The notes beneath the pieces are model-generated. The model was not told where the DNA came from. It saw nothing but the letters and a program-made list of their open reading frames with translations, and did no database searches. Source: Clostridia bacterium (GTDB lineage: Bacteria; Bacillota; Clostridia; Oscillospirales; Acutalibacteraceae). Taken from it: DNA of 37,603 bases. Made by a program: the position numbers and the translations under genes. This document shows positions 1,984 to 21,971 of the stretch, piece by piece. Each line of letters begins with the position of its first letter. Within the stretch, counting starts at the first letter, position 1. Location of the stretch: the NCBI GenBank assembly GCA_017436285.1, contig JAFSDL010000056.1:1-37603 (forward strand), read 5' to 3'.

Positions 1984-3138
1984 TTAATTACTTAGTTTCA
2001 AAGCTCTTTCGCTTTTTCTTTTATAAAGATATTCATCTGCAGAAGCTATAAATTCTCTAATGTCTTTTATATCTTGAGTGTATTTAAAATAACCCACACT
2101 CATATGTAAAACATATTCTTTATCTCTTTTTTCTGTTTCTTCTTTTAATTTTTCATTAATCAAAATGCAAAATTCGTCTGGATTAAAATCAGCTTTCACT
2201 TCGCCTGAAACAACAAATTCATCGCCACCATACCTGAATGCATTGAGTCCTGTTTTCACGATGGCGTTTCTAATTGCATCTGCAGCTATTGTTATTGCTT
2301 CATCGCCCTCAGTATGCCCGAATTTGTCATTGATTTTTTTAAAATAGTCCATATCCATAATAAACAGATATAAATCTCTGTTGGAATTTCTGTTCTTTAT
2401 TTTATGGTCAATATATCGCTCCATTTCAGCTCTGTTATTAAGCTTTGTGAGCGGGTCAACCGAAATCAATTCCTGACGGGAACGAACATACACCTGTATT
2501 GCCGCAAAGGTAACACCTGCGCTTATCATAGGCGACCCTACAAACACAATCTGAAGAACACCGTAAATCAATGGGAAAATACAGAAATATGCCAATGTGC
2601 GATATCTTGCTCGCTTAAGATAATTATCTTTATTAAACGAACGAACAAATGCTTTTGTTGATGTTAAAACAATATAGAAAAAGCAAATTGCAATATGAGC
2701 AATATATAAGCTTCCTCTTTGGTAAACACCATCTGAATCTATAAAGAAAACCAAATTATGCTTATAAGATGCCACTATCAAGGAAACACCCAAAATGAGT
2801 GGAACAAGGCTCAAGGCAAGTCCTTTTTTTGTAGTTGTTGTGCGGGTTTCCATTTCGCTTTCCGAATACAGATACCACATATAAGCAGTAACCAATGTGA
2901 AAATATGGTATATACTATTCACCATAAAATCCACTGAATCAGAAAATTTCCACACATACGAAGCATCAACTATTCCCCATAGCAAATCGCTGCCACATAA
3001 AATCGCGGAGGAAATTATAAAGCAGGAATACACGAACTGCGACATTCGTCTGTCATTGCTTTTTATAATCTGCAAAAGAATAAGCACTAATATTGAAACA
3101 CAAAATATATTCAGTGTGCAATAAAGTATCCCTTCCAT
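1984..3138 (-). CDS. Membrane-anchored GGDEF diguanylate cyclase
   Basis: The 384-residue protein has about six or seven hydrophobic helices in residues 1-220 and a C-terminal GGDEF domain from about 225. The domain opens with VDPLTKLNNR and has the intact active-site motif RYGGDEF at 302-308, so synthesis of cyclic di-GMP from two GTP is expected at the inner face of the membrane. The RxxD inhibitory site usually found just before GGDEF is absent: the bases there encode KTGLNAF. Product feedback may therefore be lost. The membrane part has no sensor domain I can name. A strong AGGAGGGG ribosome site precedes the ATG at 3138. The rlmD-like gene ends 20 bases upstream, so the two may be cotranscribed. 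Confidence 0.88.
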   Translation of the reverse strand: MEGILYCTLNIFCVSILVLILLQIIKSNDRRMSQFVYSCFIISSAILCGSDLLWGIVDASYVWKFSDSVDFMVNSIYHIFTLVTAYMWYLYSESEMETRTTTTKKGLALSLVPLILGVSLIVASYKHNLVFFIDSDGVYQRGSLYIAHIAICFFYIVLTSTKAFVRSFNKDNYLKRARYRTLAYFCIFPLIYGVLQIVFVGSPMISAGVTFAAIQVYVRSRQELISVDPLTKLNNRAEMERYIDHKIKNRNSNRDLYLFIMDMDYFKKINDKFGHTEGDEAITIAADAIRNAIVKTGLNAFRYGGDEFVVSGEVKADFNPDEFCILINEKLKEETEKRDKEYVLHMSVGYFKYTQDIKDIREFIASADEYLYKRKSERALKLSN

Positions 3139-3158
3139 ATTTTCCCCTCCTTTTTCCT

Positions 3159-4322
3159 TTATTTTATAAGCAAAACAACCGTCTCTACATGAGCAGTGTA
3201 AGGGAACATATCCACCGGCTGAATTTTTTTAACTTTATATCCGTTTTTTATAAGATAATATAAATCTCTCTGTTGTGTTTCAGGATTGCAGGAAATATAA
3301 ACTATCCTTTCAGGCTTCAGAGCTACGGCACAGGAAAGGAATTTTTTATCACTTCCTGCTCTTGGGGGGTCCATAAAAAGAACATCACATTGTTCACCCT
3401 GCTCCTTCATAGAAAGCATAAACTCACCTGCATCTGCGCAGATAAATTTAATATTATCTATATTGTTTATCTTGGCATTGACCTTAGCATCCTTTACCGC
3501 ATCAGAGTTAAGCTCACAGCCAATTACCTCGCCCGCATTTTTCGATGCTACAATACCGATTGTTCCAATTCCGCAATAAGCATCAATAACCCTTTCTTTT
3601 CCTGAAAGCCCTGCAAATTCAACAGCCTTGCCATAAAGCTTTTCAGTCTGAATTGGGTTTATCTGATAAAAGGATTTGGGAGATATTCTGAAGGTGCAAC
3701 CGCACAAAACATCTTCAATATACCCATTACCGTAAAGCACCGTTTCTTTTTCACCCAGAACCATACTTGTAAATTTATTGTTTATATTCTGAACAATTGT
3801 TGTTATTTCCTGGTGTTTTTTTAAAAGCTCTTTTATAAAATTGTTTTTAGACGGGAAAAACCCCGTTCCCGTTACGAGAACAACCATTATCTGATTTGTT
3901 GCAAAGCCTCTTTTAACAAGAACGTGCCGAAGAAAGCCAGTGCCCTTTCTTTCATCGTAAACAGTAAGCTTAAAATCCTTAACCATTTTTCTTATGGTTA
4001 CAATAATTTCATCGGCTTTTTCATCCTCAATCAAACAAGCATCTGTTTTCACTATATTATGGGTGCTTGACTGATACACACCCGATATAATTTCACCGCC
4101 ACGAGTTCTGCCAAAGGCGGCTTGCACTTTATTTCTGTAATGAAAAGGCTTTTCCATACCGATAATTTCATTTACTCTATGAAAAGAGCCTAAAAGCTTC
4201 ACAACCTTTGCCTGCTTATACTTTAATTGTTCAGGATATGTCATATTCATTAACTGACAACCGCCACATTTTCTTGAAACAGGGCAAATTCGTTTTTTAT
4301 CTGTATTTTTTCTATCAGGCAT
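3159..4322 (-). CDS. RlmD/TrmA-family RNA (uracil-5-)-methyltransferase
   Basis: These enzymes transfer a methyl group from S-adenosylmethionine to uracil C5 in 23S rRNA or tRNA. Visible here are the iron-sulfur cysteines (CPVSRKCGGCQ near residue 13), a SAM-binding segment VIDAYCGIGTIGI, the motif DPPRAGSDKKFL and the catalytic cysteine in YISCNPETQQRD. The 387 residues fit the family but lack the N-terminal TRAM RNA-binding domain of many RlmD/RlmC proteins. Which uracil is modified cannot be read from sequence; Bacillus RlmCD handles two sites in 23S rRNA. The start overlaps the end of the GtrA-like gene by 8 bases, with AGGAAA six bases upstream, suggesting coupled translation. Confidence 0.9.
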   Translation of the reverse strand: MPDRKNTDKKRICPVSRKCGGCQLMNMTYPEQLKYKQAKVVKLLGSFHRVNEIIGMEKPFHYRNKVQAAFGRTRGGEIISGVYQSSTHNIVKTDACLIEDEKADEIIVTIRKMVKDFKLTVYDERKGTGFLRHVLVKRGFATNQIMVVLVTGTGFFPSKNNFIKELLKKHQEITTIVQNINNKFTSMVLGEKETVLYGNGYIEDVLCGCTFRISPKSFYQINPIQTEKLYGKAVEFAGLSGKERVIDAYCGIGTIGIVASKNAGEVIGCELNSDAVKDAKVNAKINNIDNIKFICADAGEFMLSMKEQGEQCDVLFMDPPRAGSDKKFLSCAVALKPERIVYISCNPETQQRDLYYLIKNGYKVKKIQPVDMFPYTAHVETVVLLIK

Positions 4323-16627: not shown

Positions 16628-16644
16628 AATAAACTCATCAGTAT

Positions 16645-16735
16645 TTTTCCTACGACGGCATTATCCGCATCAGGTTATTAGGGTCAGAAAAGGGATGTTT
16701 TCTTTCTCAGCCGGCGTCCGCCAGCTCCCCTGTTT
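16645..16735 (-). ncRNA. TPP riboswitch aptamer (thi-box)
   Basis: Read on the minus strand it has the conserved blocks of the TPP aptamer in order: GGGGAGC (16724-16730), CTGAGA, CTGACCC, ACCTGAT, then GGATAATGCCG and CGTAGGA. The spacing between the two sensor arms is normal. TPP binding to this element (family knowledge) lowers expression; together with the terminator at 16587-16627 it controls thiT by transcription attenuation. Confidence 0.95.
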
Positions 16736-16776
16736 TATTTTCGGCAAAATTTGTGGCCACTAAACTTTGCAACTTC

Positions 16777-16811: not shown

Positions 16812-17531
16812 TCACATATTTTTTGCTCTGAAGGGTATGTTTTCACCGCAAAGTCTTTTGGAAATTCTCAAAAAGGCACTGTTCCCCTTGCAGTCGTATG
16901 GAATTTTTTCACCGTTTACACCTGCATAAATTTCCTGAGAATCGGGAATGATTCCTAAAAGCCTTGCGCCAACCACATCAATAATTTCATCAACATTTAT
17001 TTTTTTGTGTAGCCTCTTGTTAAACTTGTTCACAACAAGCCTCACATCACCTACACCGGCTTTTCTTATATTTTCGCAGGCATAGGATGCGGCACGGATG
17101 CTTATATTATCGGGCGTGGAAATAATAATTGCACTGTCACAGGCTTTTGAAGAAAGGGTAAATCCGCTTTCAAGACCTGCAGGAGCATCAAGGAATATAA
17201 AATCAAAATCCTTTTTGTATTTATCGATACATTCAGAAAACTTTTCTGTGGTGTAGTCCTCAGAAAAATCAATTGGTGCAGGAAGAAGAAATAAATTCCT
17301 ACTTACCTGAATAACCGCTTTTCTGTAATCCACATTGTTTTTTATTACATCGCCCCAGTTATAGACGGTTTTTTCAGAAACTCCCAATAAAATATCAAGG
17401 CTTCTGACACCAATATCCATATCCACAAGAAGCACGCTCTTATCGTGAAGGGCTAACATTTTACCCACACAAGAGCAGAATGTGGATTTACCCACACCAC
17501 CCTTGGCAGATGCAACAGATATAACACTCAT
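16812..17531 (-). CDS. minD: MinD/ParA-family ATPase, MinD-like
   Basis: The protein opens MSVISVASAKGGVGKST, a deviant Walker A with lysines 10 and 15, followed by LLVDMDIGVRSLDILLG and FIFLDAPAGLES. These are MinD signatures. At the C-terminus, SAFLRISKRLCG resembles the amphipathic membrane-targeting helix of MinD. MinD cycles on and off the membrane with ATP to position division. No minC or minE is next to it, so its partners are elsewhere or it has another role. At 239 residues it is slightly short. The start at 17531 follows GGTGAT; an in-frame start at 17555 has no ribosome site. The neighbouring mre-mrdA genes, across the repeat block, suggest an original mre-mrdA-min cluster. Confidence 0.85.
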   Translation of the reverse strand: MSVISVASAKGGVGKSTFCSCVGKMLALHDKSVLLVDMDIGVRSLDILLGVSEKTVYNWGDVIKNNVDYRKAVIQVSRNLFLLPAPIDFSEDYTTEKFSECIDKYKKDFDFIFLDAPAGLESGFTLSSKACDSAIIISTPDNISIRAASYACENIRKAGVGDVRLVVNKFNKRLHKKINVDEIIDVVGARLLGIIPDSQEIYAGVNGEKIPYDCKGNSAFLRISKRLCGENIPFRAKNM

Positions 17532-17569
17532 TTTATCACCAAAAATCATTTTCAAGCTACTTGGATTTT

Positions 17570-17599
17570 ACTATATAATTTTAAAATTGTAAACACCAA
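17570..17599 (-). promoter_or_regulatory. Possible minD promoter
   Basis: On the minus strand TTGGTG (17594-17599), 18 bases and TATAGT (17570-17575). Match is moderate. minD would need its own promoter because the repeat block separates it from the mre operon. Confidence 0.35.
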
Positions 17600-17619
17600 A
17601 CTTACAGAACAATAAAAAC

Positions 17620-17767
17620 CAGGGACAATTCTAAAACAAATTGCCCCTGATTTAGTTGTTTTAAAATGGCAAAAATCCTTGATTTACAAAGGATTACGAC
17701 TCAATCATAGAACCGTCCCCTGATTGGTCCATCTCCCCTGATTGGTCGAACCGTCCCCTGATTGGTC
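17620..17767. repeat. Hairpin repeat, copy A (diverged)
   Basis: The first stem pairs CAGGGACAATT (17620-17630) with AATTGCCCCTG (17639-17649), one mismatch. A second stem AATCCTT-AAGGATT follows, then the end TCAATCATAGAACCGTCCCCTGATTGG (two parts: TCAATCATAGAACC, GTCCCCTGATTGG). CCCCTGATTGGTC then recurs at 17717, 17735 and 17755. Compared with copies B and C, the inner stem has changed from GGTT/AACC to AATT/AATT, so pairing is kept. Confidence 0.85.
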
Positions 17768-17773
17768 TCTCGC

Positions 17774-17868
17774 GTTTGGTCACCCAAACACAGACTTGTC
17801 AGGAATATTCCTGAAACCTTTAAGGGCTTGGGATTATCCCAACAAACTGCCTTTTGTCCCCAAAAGGC
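17774..17868. repeat. Cluster of four short palindromes
   Basis: In 95 bases: GTTTGG-TCAC-CCAAAC (17774-17789), the 16-bp perfect palindrome TCAGGAATATTCCTGA (17799-17814), TTGGGAT-T-ATCCCAA (17828-17842) and GCCTTTTG-TCCC-CAAAAGGC (17849-17868). No gene is visible here. The cluster lies between repeat copy A and the lipoprotein stop codon. Confidence 0.7.
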
Positions 17869-17886
17869 GATGCTTGCTGGTATAAT

Positions 17887-18432
17887 TCATATCAACTCTT
17901 CATTTATGTTTATGACGTTATTTGAAGTATCATATTCTATGGTAATTAGGTATCCGTCTTTGGTGTAATGGGAAGATACTTTCGGTGTATCATTTCTGCC
18001 AGTATAAAGAAACAAATATTCACCATTAGGATCAATCTCTCGTACCTCATCTAACGGCTGACCCTTTGCCAGTTCATCAAAAGCAGATTTTAATAACTGT
18101 ATGCTGTAAGTACTCACCGAAAGTCTGTTACCCGAACCATCAAACAAGAATATTACAATACTCCCATTGCCAAGATACGATACTCGATACATTCCGTTAT
18201 CTTCTCTCAAACATTCAATGGGATATTGAGCGTTTAACTCATCAATTGAACCATTGAATTTTGAAATTTCTAATAATTGCGGTTCATCATAAATTTTAGA
18301 TACCAAATCAATTAAACTCTTATCCGACGGGGATATTTCAATTTTCAAATCACTTCCTCCTTTAGCACAAGCACAAAGCAAAAACAGCAAAATCATTATA
18401 AAAATTAAAGTAAAATTTTTTGTTAACCGCAT
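17887..18432 (-). CDS. Small lipoprotein, unknown function
   Basis: A 181-residue protein with a signal peptide and a lipobox ending LLCACAK, so C22 (or C20) is the likely lipidated residue. The mature part has two mixed segments: an N-terminal part around LIDLVSKIYDEPQLLEIS and a C-terminal part GQPLDEVREIDPNGEYLF with LYTGRNDTPKVSSHYTKDG. The GxxxxEVxxxDPNG pattern loosely recalls BamE/SmpA-like folds; this is only a resemblance. In its surroundings of toxin-like debris it could be an orphan immunity protein (inference). The start at 18432 has GAGG six bases upstream; a TTG at 18444 is rejected. It sits between repeat copies A and B. Confidence 0.72.
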   Translation of the reverse strand: MRLTKNFTLIFIMILLFLLCACAKGGSDLKIEISPSDKSLIDLVSKIYDEPQLLEISKFNGSIDELNAQYPIECLREDNGMYRVSYLGNGSIVIFLFDGSGNRLSVSTYSIQLLKSAFDELAKGQPLDEVREIDPNGEYLFLYTGRNDTPKVSSHYTKDGYLITIEYDTSNNVININEELI

Positions 18433-18483
18433 AACACACCTCAATTCCCCACAGCATAGTAGATTATTGCACTATCATAGAAA

Positions 18484-18630
18484 AAATCAGGGGACGGTTC
18501 TGTGATTGACGATTATTGCAACCAAAAACCGCCCCTGATTTCAAATTTTAAAAGCTGAAAAGCCTTGATTTACAAGGAGTTAAGGCTCAATCATAGAACC
18601 GTCCCCTGATTGGTCCTCCCCTGATTGGTC
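18484..18630. repeat. Hairpin repeat, copy B
   Basis: The core 18484-18615 is identical to copy C at 131 of 132 bases (T18594 is C19081). The ends are a 25-base inverted repeat (AATCAGGGGACGGTTCTG... against ...AGAACCGTCCCCTGATT) with one G-T pair. An inner stem pairs CAGGGGACGGTT with AACCGCCCCTG (one bulged A), and CCTTG-ATTTA-CAAGG forms another hairpin. An extra CCCCTGATTGGTC follows at 18618-18630. Confidence 0.92.
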
Positions 18631-18964
18631 CTCTATTGATTTTAGTAGCTCCTGACATTGGATTAGACTGTACTTGTTCCATTGCAAGTTTTTCTTTTAA
18701 ATTCACAGGTGTTGTTCTACCTGATGAACCTTTAGAAATAAACTTTTCCGAAACCTCCGAACCAGCTTTTTTTACAACATTTGAAACCCCTTTTGAAGCC
18801 ACTTTAGTCGCAATCTTTTGCCCAACTGCCCCCATAGCAGCTCCAACAGCACCACCAATAACAGCTTTAGCACTAACTTTACCCGTTTCTATCTTTGAAA
18901 CAGACGCACCTATTGCACCACCAGTAATGGCACCTATAATAGCACCACCAATAAGACAAGCCAC
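18587..18964 (-). pseudogene. Truncated polymorphic-toxin-like fragment (glycine-zipper pre-toxin region)
   Basis: The 125-residue frame begins in a glycine-rich helix pair (IGGAIIGAITGGAIGASVS, then AVIGGAVGAAMGAVG). It continues to TPVNLKEKLAMEQVQSNP. The same order, glycine zipper then LKE(K/Q)LAMEQ, occurs at the C-terminal end of RHS/YD-type polymorphic toxins, from memory of that family. The RHS core is missing upstream: repeat copy C adds an in-frame TGA only three codons before the GTG start. The toxin domain is missing downstream: the last 14 residues GPIRGGPIRGRFYD are encoded by repeat copy B. I therefore read it as a gene remnant trapped between two repeats. Expression is doubtful, as no ribosome site precedes the GTG. 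Confidence 0.68.
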
Positions 18965-18970
18965 AAACGA

Positions 18971-19140
18971 AAATCAGGGGACGGTTCTGTGATTGACGAT
19001 TATTGCAACCAAAAACCGCCCCTGATTTCAAATTTTAAAAGCTGAAAAGCCTTGATTTACAAGGAGTTAAGGCTCAATCACAGAACCGTCCCCTGATTGG
19101 TCTTGTCCCCCTGTCTTGTCGATTCACCCCTGATTGGTTC
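18971..19140. repeat. Hairpin repeat, copy C
   Basis: The core 18971-19102 has a perfect 25-base terminal inverted repeat (18972-18996 against the end near 19098). It is followed by degenerate short units: GTCCCCCTGTCTTGTC, and CCCCTGATTGGTTC at 19127-19140. It abuts the toxin-like fragment at 18971, and its tail supplies the last codons of the membrane protein gene at 19124. Confidence 0.92.
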
Positions 19141-19621
19141 TATGACTTTCAATTAGTTCTTTTAAAAAAACATCTTTATGCAGAGGATCAAAAGCAATTA
19201 TCACAGCATCATCAATACACAACTTTGAAGAATTAGCACTACGATTAGCCAATTTTTTTATTTCTATTTCCGTTTTAGCATTTGATGTTAACACAGCAAA
19301 TAAATTACCTTTAAAATTCGTAGTATAGTAGACGTTCGAAAAATACGCCCAATTAAATTGTCTATATTTACTATGTTTATCGTTAAATATCAACAGACCA
19401 ACATCATCAAAAACTACAATTATTTTCGATGAATTATACAATGATTTTGTTAAAAGTAAAAACATTAAACCACTTACAAATAAAAACAAGGTATGAAAAC
19501 CTATTTGGATAAAACTAAAACCAAAAACAACAAAAGAAAAAACCGCCATAATTATTGTAAATATAGCAAACCCAAAGTGAGTTCTATACGGTTGATAAAT
19601 AATTCTATTTAAATCATTCAT
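19124..19621 (-). CDS. Small membrane protein with PH-like cytoplasmic domain, possibly 3'-truncated
   Basis: The 165-residue protein has two transmembrane helices (about 17-37 and 41-58), then a beta-rich region (KIIVVFDDVGLLIFNDK, RQFNWAYFSNVYYTTNF, NLFAVLTSNAKTEIEIKK) like the bacterial PH-domain proteins that follow paired helices. Function is not known; similar small membrane proteins can be immunity factors, which is only an inference from the surroundings. The last five residues RTNQG and the stop are encoded by repeat sequence, so the natural C-terminus may be lost. GGAG lies seven bases before the ATG. The remnant upstream ends four bases before this start, so the two were probably one operon. 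Confidence 0.68.
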   Translation of the reverse strand: MNDLNRIIYQPYRTHFGFAIFTIIMAVFSFVVFGFSFIQIGFHTLFLFVSGLMFLLLTKSLYNSSKIIVVFDDVGLLIFNDKHSKYRQFNWAYFSNVYYTTNFKGNLFAVLTSNAKTEIEIKKLANRSANSSKLCIDDAVIIAFDPLHKDVFLKELIESHRTNQG

Positions 19622-19625
19622 ATCA

Positions 19626-19751
19626 TTACTCCAACATTAATACTATTTCTTCAGTTTCGCACTCCTCTTTCTCTTGTTTTTTTGATACCCCCATTGAAAT
19701 TGATTTAACTGTATTTGTTATAATAATATCAGAACAACTGATTAACGTAGC
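19626..19751 (-). pseudogene. C-terminal remnant of a gene cut by repeat copy D
   Basis: An open frame of about 41 codons runs from the repeat boundary to a TAA four bases before the next gene. It reads through SDIIITNTVKSISMGVSKK and KEECETEEIVLMLE. There is no start codon context, and the upstream part is replaced by repeat copy D. Its close coupling to the following start suggests it was the 3' end of a real gene. The product cannot be identified. Confidence 0.45.
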
Positions 19752-19822
19752 ACAAGGGACGGTTCTGTGTGTTGTCTATTAATAATCCTCAACATAGAGA
19801 ACCGTCCCCTGTCCTGTCTGTC
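19752..19822. repeat. Hairpin repeat, copy D (short form)
   Basis: GGGACGGTTCT (19756-19766) pairs with AGAACCGTCCC (19798-19808). Inside, TGTTG pairs with CAACA. The interior differs from copies A to C. It ends in CCTGTCCTGTCTGTC, similar to the tail of copy C. It lies 40 bases downstream of the mrdA stop codon. Confidence 0.85.
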
Positions 19823-19862
19823 AGCAAATCCGATGGTGTTTTGTTATCTTTGTTCTTCACTA

Positions 19863-21971
19863 TTACGGAATCAGTTCGTTTACTGTTCCTGCGGAATCGA
19901 AGCTTGTTTTCTGACCGAAATAATAGTTATAAACAGGGACTGCCGCCTGAGAGGTCTGGCTACCTGTCAAAGCATTTTCTGCCACAATGGCAATTGCAAT
20001 TTCAGGGTCATCATACGGTGCAAAGGAAATGAAAAAGCCATTGTTACAAATCATTGTTACACCGCTTTCGGTTGTCCTTTTAACCTGTGATGTACCTGTT
20101 TTACCTGCAACGTCAACTATACATTTGTTGAAATACACTGAGCTTGCACCCTCTGATACCACCTGGCGCATACCCTGTTTTACTATATCAAGGGTCTTTT
20201 TGCTGACATTTATGGTATTAAGCACCTCAGGCTCTGTTTCATAAATAACCTCTGACATATCTGCGGAAAGAACAGATTTTATCATATATGGCTTATATCT
20301 TGTGCCACCGTTTGCAATTGTTGCACAGTAGTTTGCAAGCTGCAACGGAGTGAAAAGGTTATCAGACTGACCGATTGCCGCCTGAACAGTATCACCCGGA
20401 TTCCACACCTGACCTGCCGCCTCTTTATTGGCAATGCTTGCTAAAACTCCCTCAGCTTCAGGCAATTCAACACCTGTTTTCTGACCCAAGCCTAACAGAC
20501 TACAGTATTTATTCATTTTATCAATACCCAGCTTTCTACCCATTTCAAAGAAATAGATATTGCAGGATTTCTGAATAGCACTTGTAACATTCAGATAGCC
20601 GTGACTCTGAAGGCATTTAAAGGTCTGATCTTCCAGCACATAAGTTCCCCCACAGTAGCAGGTAGTGCTTGTGGTTGCCTCGCCCTCCTCAAGAGCCGCT
20701 ATTGCAATAGCGGGCTTCATTGTTGAACCGGGAGCATATGCGCTCTGCAAGGCTCTGTTCCACAACGGGCTTTCGGTATCCGCAGCCAGCTTACTATAAT
20801 CTGTGAAATATCTTGTAATATCATAAGTGGGTAAGGATACATTGGCAAGCACTGCACCTGTTTTGCAATTCATAACAACCATTGCACCCGCAGTGCCGAA
20901 ATAAGAGGAATTCTTATTATCTATAAGCATTTCCTGCAATGCCTTTGCCGCAACCTTCTGAAGCTCGGCATCAATTGTTGTAACAACAGTATTTCCCTGA
21001 ATGGGCTTTGAAAGATAATCCTCGGTAACAGTACCATCGGAATTTGTAGTTGTTGTTTTTATTCCGTTGGTTCCTCTGAGATAGCTTTCCATTGTAGCCT
21101 CAATACCGCTTTTACCGTAGCTGTCATTAAGGGAATAGGCGTTATTTTTCAACACCTTTATTTCTTTCGCGGTAAGTGTATCGTCATTTAATTTTTCAGA
21201 AAGCTTTTTTGTTTCAAGCTCATATTCTTCCGCACTGATAGAGCCCACCACACCTAAAATATGAGAAAAGCTGGTTTTATCGCTATATTCTCTGTAGCTG
21301 ACGCTTTCACTGTCAACACCGGGGTAGGTGGTGCTTTTTTCTTTTATTGCAGAAACTATTTCTGTTGGCACATCCTCTGCAAAGGTATATGGCGAGGAAG
21401 CGGAAAAATATGAATATTTCATTCCAAAGCAAACGGATGCAATTTTTCTTGCATCCTTTCTTGAATAATCTTCAAGACCGTATCTTTCAATCAGGGCATC
21501 AAGGCATTCCTCTGCGGTTGATTTTTCGCCCTTTTCCATCTCAAGCATATTTTCAGAAACCATATATTCAAATTCAGCTTCTTTATCCTTATCAATTACA
21601 AGATTTCCGTTTTTATATTTAAGAGGAAGATTATCAATCCATTCAACATCATTTTTCTCAAAAAGCTTTATAAGAGAAAAAATCAATTCATTTCTTTCAT
21701 TCTGCTTTTTTGATGAGGGGAATTCAGAATATTTGAACACCACAGAATTCCCCTGCCTGTTTGTGACAAGGGGATTACCGTTGCAATCGAGAATTTCTCC
21801 TCTTGATGCTTTGACGGAGCTACTTGAAACTGCTAAGCTATCTGCCGCAGATTTATATTGCTCTGCATCAATAAGCTGTGTTTTCACAAGAGCCAAAGCA
21901 AGAAACCCAAAAAGCAAGCCTATTATTATTGTACCTGCAACTCTTCTTTTTTTTCGTAATTCAATAGACAT
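19863..21971 (-). CDS. mrdA: Penicillin-binding protein 2 (elongation transpeptidase)
   Basis: PBP2 crosslinks peptidoglycan of the lateral wall as part of the MreBCD/RodA elongasome. The 702-residue protein has an N-terminal membrane helix (about 12-30), the dimerisation/pedestal region beginning ASRGEILDCNGNPL, and a transpeptidase domain. The three penicillin-binding motifs are intact: STMK (S416, K419), SCN (469-471) and KTGT (624-627). It follows mreD by five bases. Its stop is close to repeat copy D, where the operon is broken off from minD. rodA is not in the window. Confidence 0.94.
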   Translation of the reverse strand: MSIELRKKRRVAGTIIIGLLFGFLALALVKTQLIDAEQYKSAADSLAVSSSSVKASRGEILDCNGNPLVTNRQGNSVVFKYSEFPSSKKQNERNELIFSLIKLFEKNDVEWIDNLPLKYKNGNLVIDKDKEAEFEYMVSENMLEMEKGEKSTAEECLDALIERYGLEDYSRKDARKIASVCFGMKYSYFSASSPYTFAEDVPTEIVSAIKEKSTTYPGVDSESVSYREYSDKTSFSHILGVVGSISAEEYELETKKLSEKLNDDTLTAKEIKVLKNNAYSLNDSYGKSGIEATMESYLRGTNGIKTTTTNSDGTVTEDYLSKPIQGNTVVTTIDAELQKVAAKALQEMLIDNKNSSYFGTAGAMVVMNCKTGAVLANVSLPTYDITRYFTDYSKLAADTESPLWNRALQSAYAPGSTMKPAIAIAALEEGEATTSTTCYCGGTYVLEDQTFKCLQSHGYLNVTSAIQKSCNIYFFEMGRKLGIDKMNKYCSLLGLGQKTGVELPEAEGVLASIANKEAAGQVWNPGDTVQAAIGQSDNLFTPLQLANYCATIANGGTRYKPYMIKSVLSADMSEVIYETEPEVLNTINVSKKTLDIVKQGMRQVVSEGASSVYFNKCIVDVAGKTGTSQVKRTTESGVTMICNNGFFISFAPYDDPEIAIAIVAENALTGSQTSQAAVPVYNYYFGQKTSFDSAGTVNELIP

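What the first reader, a model, noticed from the sequence alone, without database searches (positions are those of the whole stretch)
17620..19822. Family of hairpin repeats with paired base changes and perfect terminal inverted repeats
Four copies (17620, 18484, 18971, 19752) share the end AGAACCGTCCCCTG(ATT). Copy C has a perfect 25-base terminal inverted repeat. Copies B and C match at 131 of 132 bases. In copy A the inner stem CGGTT/AACCG of B and C has become CAATT/AATTG, keeping both base pairs. The outer arm also varies in step: TTCTG/CAGAA in C, TTCTA/TAGAA in A. Paired changes mean the fold is under selection, as DNA substrate or RNA. No transposase is present, so this looks like a MITE- or REP-like element moved in trans.
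Basis: seen in the sequence. Interest (0 to 1): 0.8.

Follow-up and report, generated by a model that had tools for sequence, protein, structure and literature searches.

The report
Mobile hairpin repeats beside toxin genes
The four repeats are small non-autonomous mobile DNA elements whose hairpin ends match those of a REP-type transposase element found in related gut bacteria, and this element family sits strikingly often beside Rhs toxin genes, which suggests it may help shuffle toxin and immunity genes.

Summary
The repeats are real. GGGGACGGTTCT occurs 10 times in this 2.05-Mb genome and in 28 of 60 genomes searched, own included. In four congeners the same ends directly flank a Y1/REP-type tyrosine transposase gene (RAYT); in a wider set, 46 of 67 RAYT loci with full flanks have both ends at <=2 mismatches. 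Copies A-D are most likely non-autonomous mini-elements moved by such a RAYT. None was found in this 84%-complete genome.

Each end is a hairpin with an invariant 12-base loop and a variable, complementary stem (90% of cells paired; shuffled 60%, slid <=53%).

Unexpectedly, 18 of 62 element loci in the genus lie within 5 kb of an Rhs toxin core (0.5 expected), and 16 of 80 RAYT loci have an Rhs core nearby, always on the RAYT strand. The window's 2.3-kb array of four elements and three ORFs is absent at the same site in congeners. Shuffling of toxin/immunity modules by the RAYT is plausible, not shown. Nearest known kind: RAYT/TIRYT elements.

The parts
17616..17726 (+). Copy A: old mini-element, left end degraded (CAGGGACAATTCT), intact right end AGAACCGTCCCCTGATTGG
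   Evidence: orthologue in G003 (L177)
17727..17767 (+). Tail outside copy A: partial repeats of the outer end (CCCCTGATTGGTC units)
   Evidence: (D5)
17887..18444 (-). ORF of 185 aa between copies A and B, looks like a lipoprotein (reading by eye), no family hit
18484..18612 (+). Copy B: intact mini-element, arms 18485-18509 and 18587-18611
18587..18964 (-). ORF of 125 aa, glycine-zipper-like (below Pfam cut-off), its C-terminus runs into copy B's end and tail
18971..19099 (+). Copy C: intact mini-element, perfect 25-base terminal inverted repeat
19124..19621 (-). ORF of 165 aa, small membrane protein by eye, no family hit; its C-terminus ends in the tail of copy C
19749..19816 (+). Copy D: short two-ended element with the other stem type (ACA/TGT)
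   Evidence: (I1)
17556..19862 (.). Whole array between parA-like gene and PBP gene; absent at this site in congeners

Best explanation
Copies A-D are non-autonomous mini-elements (REPIN- or MITE-like) of a transposon family whose full-length members carry one gene, a RAYT-type Y1 tyrosine transposase of about 250 aa. Each end is a small hairpin: an invariant loop GGGGACGGTTCT inside a stem of about 6 base pairs whose sequence varies from element to element but stays complementary and is matched between the two ends. Shown by computation: the shared ends, the flanked transposase gene, the hairpin, the absence of the array in congeners. Inferred: that the RAYT binds these hairpins as single strands and cuts and joins there, that the loop is what it reads, and that the copies here were moved in trans by a RAYT now lost from, or missing in the assembly of, this genome.
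For: Same 12-base end in 28 of 60 genomes, own included. In 4 congeners the ORF directly between the two ends is Y1_Tnp, E 1e-14 to 1e-15. Of 80 RAYT loci from a protein search, 67 have 350 bp on both sides: 31 have both ends exact, 46 at <=2 mismatches; a window 1150-1500 bp upstream has 0 of 62 exact, 2 of 62 at <=2. Up to four of these loci are the query loci themselves, chosen because they had ends. Stem pairing in fixed register: left ends 4.95 of 6, right ends 5.11 of 6, against 2.9-3.0 when arms are dealt anew and 1.2-2.4 when slid; 90.2% of cells paired against 59.6 shuffled, covariation 0.817 against 0.235, 0 of 500 as high. Left and right outer arms agree at 5.2 of 6 against 3.0 shuffled. 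Stem class changes at least 14 times on a quick tree of 77 RAYTs, so the variation is not one inherited change. Relation to known RAYTs: NCBIfam REP_Tyr_transpos 70.5-84.5 bits, cut-off 80; the only solved-structure hit is TnpArep 4er8, E 0.0019. The array is missing in congeners.
Against: No RAYT of this group was found in the window's genome; it does have an IS200-like Y1 gene on C21 without these ends nearby. In one search the two measures that count pairs or pair types do not exceed the shuffles (5 against 5.2; 17 against 15.7, 143 of 500 as high), and cell-based measures can be raised by relatedness. 9 of 67 RAYT loci have neither end even at 2 mismatches. No clean target-site or precise empty site was established for a single mini-element. 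No biochemical evidence.
Confidence: 0.88

Rival explanations
1. The elements and their RAYT are a vehicle for shuffling Rhs C-terminal tips and immunity genes: modules of one or two ORFs bounded by element copies are moved between loci, by the RAYT acting on outer ends or by recombination between element copies, giving cassette-like arrays such as the one in the window. This adds to the best explanation rather than replacing it.
For: 18 of 62 element loci within 5 kb of an Rhs core, expected 0.52, maximum 5 in 20000 simulations. 24 of 32 Rhs cores in element-bearing genomes lie near an element locus. 19 cores have an exact end within 3 kb downstream, 8 upstream, mostly 1.1-2.0 kb downstream. 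16 of 80 RAYT loci have an Rhs core within the held flank, 18 of 18 core hits on the RAYT strand; without the four query loci, 14 of 76. Element-plus-ORF stretch L017 2300-3130 (G012:C1) recurs at 82% at another place, G018:C4, while the G012 site is empty or nearly so in G002 and G018. The window array carries three ORFs into a site where congeners have none. 13 of 38 ORFs between elements end inside an element end.
Against: The window's genome has no Rhs core at E 1e-5 and its three ORFs have no relatives in the loci held. Only one clear case of an element-plus-ORF module at two loci. Junctions are not clean: in G012 the right part of the insert is not an element. Toxin islands may simply tolerate insertions. 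Controls are weak: 0 of 6 rve transposases near Rhs, 1 of 13 loci of another palindromic repeat.
Confidence: 0.3
2. Rhs islands are merely safe ground: mini-elements insert anywhere tolerated and accumulate in gene-poor, decaying orphan-module arrays without any role there.
For: Most element loci, 44 of 62, are not within 5 kb of an Rhs core. Many neighbouring ORFs look truncated by elements. Another repeat family shares some of the same loci in G009.
Against: The strand bias of 18 of 18 core hits and the modal distance of 1.1-2.0 kb downstream of the core are not expected from loose tolerance alone, though gene order in toxin loci could produce part of it.
Confidence: 0.45
3. The hairpins are RNA elements (transcription terminators or mRNA stabilisers), not transposon ends.
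For: Copy A's left hairpin scores as terminator-like on the - strand, reading towards the parA-like gene. Strong folds.
Against: Only copy A's hairpins score; 3 terminator-like sites found against 1.2 expected. No bacterial Rfam family matches; only miRNA models far below their cut-offs. The ends flank a transposase gene across Clostridia.
Confidence: 0.04
4. The array is an integron-like cassette array with attC-like sites.
For: Single ORFs separated by folded repeats of about 60-130 bases.
Against: No integron integrase over the curated cut-off in 22 genus genomes; only generic tyrosine recombinases. The ends belong to a Y1 transposase.
Confidence: 0.01

Closest known systems
TIRYT / TIRtron elements (Di Nocera et al. 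2013, PMC3733652), TnpAREP subclass 2.1 = RAYT group 1 (PMC6006769)
   Same: Y1 transposase gene flanked by inverted repeats that also occur as separate families; shared GGGG core; C-terminal helix-turn-helix-like part (weak hits). Three sister RAYTs (L120, L130, L137) have the palindrome GGGGTCAGACCCC, which fits the published GGGGWSAS.
   Different: Our core is GGGGACGG, which breaks GGGGWSAS at position 7. Ends are hairpins with constant loop and covarying stem; the 2018 paper reports that no REP-like sequences were found beside subclass 2.1 genes (section 20).
REP / REPIN with RAYT
   Same: Inverted pair of small hairpins, non-autonomous, related to a RAYT gene whose ends it shares.
   Different: No GTAG tag; loop of 12-13 bases instead of a short one; stem sequence free to vary; few copies, clustered in arrays with ORFs between.
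CGTC-tagged REPs (PMC3733652)
   Same: Loop complement contains CGTC letters.
   Different: Those have CGTC as an unpaired end, 8-9 bp stems, 4-5 base loops and no associated transposase (section 6 and 16).
E. coli Rhs elements with H-repeat and downstream C-terminal tips (PMC3032704, passages only)
   Same: An insertion-sequence-like unit beside Rhs cores and orphan tips.
   Different: H-repeat is another transposase type (recalled); here it is a Y1/RAYT element with mini-element population.

Membership tests
RAYT (TnpAREP) transposase | Y1_Tnp (PF01797) domain | tested here: met
   4 of 4 flanked ORFs over the Pfam cut-off; 5 of 5 further ones, L026 repeated
RAYT (TnpAREP) transposase | HUH motif and catalytic tyrosine | tested here: met
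   H63-I-H65 region and Y122 invariant in the 4-row alignment; which residues are catalytic is recalled
RAYT (TnpAREP) transposase | Curated NCBIfam REP_Tyr_transpos score | tested here: inconclusive
   3 of 8 proteins over the 80-bit cut-off, the rest 70.5-78.5
TIRYT / subclass 2.1 | Terminal inverted repeats flanking the gene | tested here: met
   46 of 67 loci with both ends at <=2 mismatches
TIRYT / subclass 2.1 | GGGGWSAS motif in the repeat | tested here: not met
   GGGGACGG in this family; met only by sister RAYTs L120, L130, L137
TIRYT / subclass 2.1 | C-terminal HTH domain | tested here: inconclusive
   HTH hits at residues about 215-248 in 4 of 5 proteins, all below cut-off
REPIN | Two inverted REP hairpins, no gene, RAYT in trans | tested here: met
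   trans action itself inferred
REPIN | GTAG-tagged REP | tested here: not met
   no GTAG at the hairpin foot in alignments A2, A3
MITE | Ends shared with an autonomous element, no ORF of its own | tested here: met
   (about 26-30 bases shared with the RAYT element of G020)
MITE | Target-site duplication | tested here: inconclusive
   none shown for mini-elements; long host duplications at a few RAYT or array insertions
Integron cassette array | Integron integrase | tested here: not met
   0 of 22 genus genomes over the cut-off

The most novel reading that the evidence does not exclude
A RAYT transposase family with constant-loop, variable-stem hairpin ends acts as the shuffling system of Rhs toxin tips and immunity genes in Clostridia: element copies bound one- or two-gene modules, and the RAYT, or recombination at element copies, moves these modules between loci, an integrase-free counterpart of cassette arrays. 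The window's array would be such a module set landed outside an Rhs locus.
Probability: 0.3. Interest if true: 0.85.

Novelty: new variant of a known kind. Interest (0 to 1): 0.6.

Why it matters
The published survey of this transposase class reports no REP-like sequences beside subclass 2.1 genes (PMC6006769, section 20). Here a Clostridial set has them, with a loop that is invariant and stems that vary and stay paired, which makes the question of what a RAYT reads (loop, stem or both) directly testable with swapped oligonucleotides. The enrichment beside Rhs cores, on one strand, points to a mobile element tied to the diversification of bacterial competition toxins, for which the mechanism of tip exchange is an open question. 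In the library searched, no paper holds both 'Rhs' and 'RAYT' as words.

Tried and rejected
Rejected: integron; known RNA family (only a TPP riboswitch at 16630-16741, outside the array, at curated thresholds); terminator as main function. Precise insertion junctions for a single mini-element were not obtained. The tail units outside the ends are only weakly in excess: 16 of 133 distinct ends outside against 8 inside. In one search ends on contigs without an Rhs core were partly left out of the typed list; they cannot change that count.

Full report
Setting. The window is contig C53 of an unnamed 2.05-Mb genome in 63 contigs, 84% complete.

The observation. Four copies with shared ends lie between a parA-like gene (16812-17555, -) and a penicillin-binding-protein gene (19863-21971, -) with three small ORFs between the copies. 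Copies B and C are intact and near-identical, D is short with another stem type, A is old: in the alignment of 22 mini-elements it shares a deletion with its counterpart in G003. The end GGGGACGGTTCT occurs in 28 of 60 genomes searched, own included, 16 of 22 in the genus, 135 times in the genus; the reversed pattern has 7 hits in all 60 genomes.

The transposase. In four congeners the ORF directly between a left and a right end is a Y1 transposase of 248-254 aa, NCBIfam REP-associated tyrosine transposase at or just under its cut-off, with TnpArep 4er8 the only solved-structure hit. Only 10 of 148 genomes searched have this group at E 1e-20, 5 of 22 in the genus, none in the window's genome. 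That genome does have another Y1 gene (C21) with no such ends in the 3.4 kb around it. A search of 84,980 species genomes kept the best 80 of 207 relatives, nearly all Clostridia metagenome assemblies and including Geosporobacter ferrireducens (two copies), Alkaliphilus and others. Of 67 with 350 bp on both sides, 31 have both ends exact and 46 at <=2 mismatches; 9 have neither.

The end hairpin. The 12 loop letters are invariant by choice of the set; the flanking arms are not. In fixed register 4.95 of 6 (left, 56 loci) and 5.11 of 6 (right, 45 loci) positions pair; dealt anew 2.92 and 2.98; slid 1.2-2.4. With the pair-counting tool on 46 distinct left ends, 90.2% of cells pair against 59.6% shuffled, covariation 0.817 against 0.235 with 0 of 500 as high, slid values up to 0.171; the counts of doubly changed pairs and of pair types do not exceed the shuffles. 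The stem class needs at least 14 changes on a quick tree with many weak forks, so complementarity was kept through repeated changes. The two ends of one element agree (5.2 of 6 against 3.0).

Relation to what is known. RAYT group 1 corresponds to subclass 2.1, whose inverted repeats fit GGGGWSAS and beside which no REP-like sequence was found (PMC6006769, passages and section 20; PMC3733652, abstract and sections 6 and 16). Sister RAYTs in our set have GGGGTCAGACCCC, which fits. Our family departs at one position and has hairpin ends. I therefore call it a new variant of TIRYT-type RAYT elements, not a confirmed member of subclass 2.1, which I could not place by tree.

Rhs neighbourhood. Rhs cores (TIGR03696) number 43 in 15 of 22 genus genomes. 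18 of 62 element loci lie within 5 kb, 0.52 expected, at most 5 in 20000 simulations that ignore contig ends. Nearest exact ends lie mostly 1.1-2.0 kb downstream of the core, about where tip and immunity gene end (inference). Outside the genus, 16 of 80 RAYT loci have an Rhs core within up to 2.5 kb, 18 of 18 hits on the RAYT strand; 15 of 16 loci have one upstream, three have one downstream. Two of the 16 are query loci. Controls are small: 0 of 6 rve transposases; 1 of 13 loci, clustered by eye, of another palindromic repeat.

Arrays with ORFs. In 9 congeners the alignable parts of parA and the PBP gene are 24-68 bp apart, in 7 more 162-260 bp with the gene ends unalignable; in G003 they lie on different contigs. 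So the 2.3-kb array is an insertion in this lineage. In G012 a 3.4-kb insert with three ORFs is missing in G002 (25 bp left) and nearly so in G018 (105 bp), while its first element-plus-ORF stretch recurs at another place in G018 at 82%. Of 38 non-RAYT ORFs between elements, 13 end inside an element end and 4 start in one. One holds an Rhs core end, one in another genus is Imm63; of the other array ORFs scanned most have no family. The window's 125-aa ORF is glycine-zipper-like below cut-off; that it is a toxin remnant is a guess.

Odd details. A RAYT element in L119 is flanked by a 142-bp direct duplication of the interrupted ORF (99.3%), the array in G020 by 167 bp (99.4%), and a parA fragment is repeated beside the array in G003. 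Most RAYT loci show nothing of the kind, so this is unexplained.

Conclusion. That these are RAYT-linked mini-elements is well supported (0.88). That they shuffle toxin and immunity modules is a plausible reading of a strong association (0.3); passive accumulation remains likelier.

Noticed in passing
L119 2253-2394 and 3315-3456 (approx.): 142-bp direct duplication (99.3%) of an interrupted GNAT/glycosylase-like ORF on both sides of a RAYT element; gene naming recalled.
   Followed up: partly
L023 2237-2403 and 4432-4598 (G020:C30): 167-bp direct host duplication flanking an array with RAYT, one gene away from the same parA-PBP neighbourhood as in the window.
   Followed up: partly
L026 (G018:C32), 1-141 and 3025-3165: A 3165-bp contig with RAYT whose two ends are identical over 141 bp: circular or tandem path in the assembly, or a real circle.
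   Followed up: no
L120, L130, L137: Sister RAYTs with palindromic ends GGGGTCAGACCCC and variable outer stems.
   Followed up: no
G009 (21 hits) and G003 (2 hits); e.g. L028 1955-2184: A separate palindromic repeat, GTAGGGGNNGGTCNNGACC, in 2 of 22 genus genomes, partly at the same loci as these elements.
   Followed up: partly
window 16630-16741 (-): TPP riboswitch (Rfam, 62.3 bits).
   Followed up: no
window 17616-17653 (-): Copy A's left hairpin is terminator-like, reading towards the parA-like gene.
   Followed up: no
window 17727-17767, 18612-18630, 19100-19138: Tandem partial end units (CCCCTGATTGGTC) just outside the right ends; also seen at other loci.
   Followed up: partly
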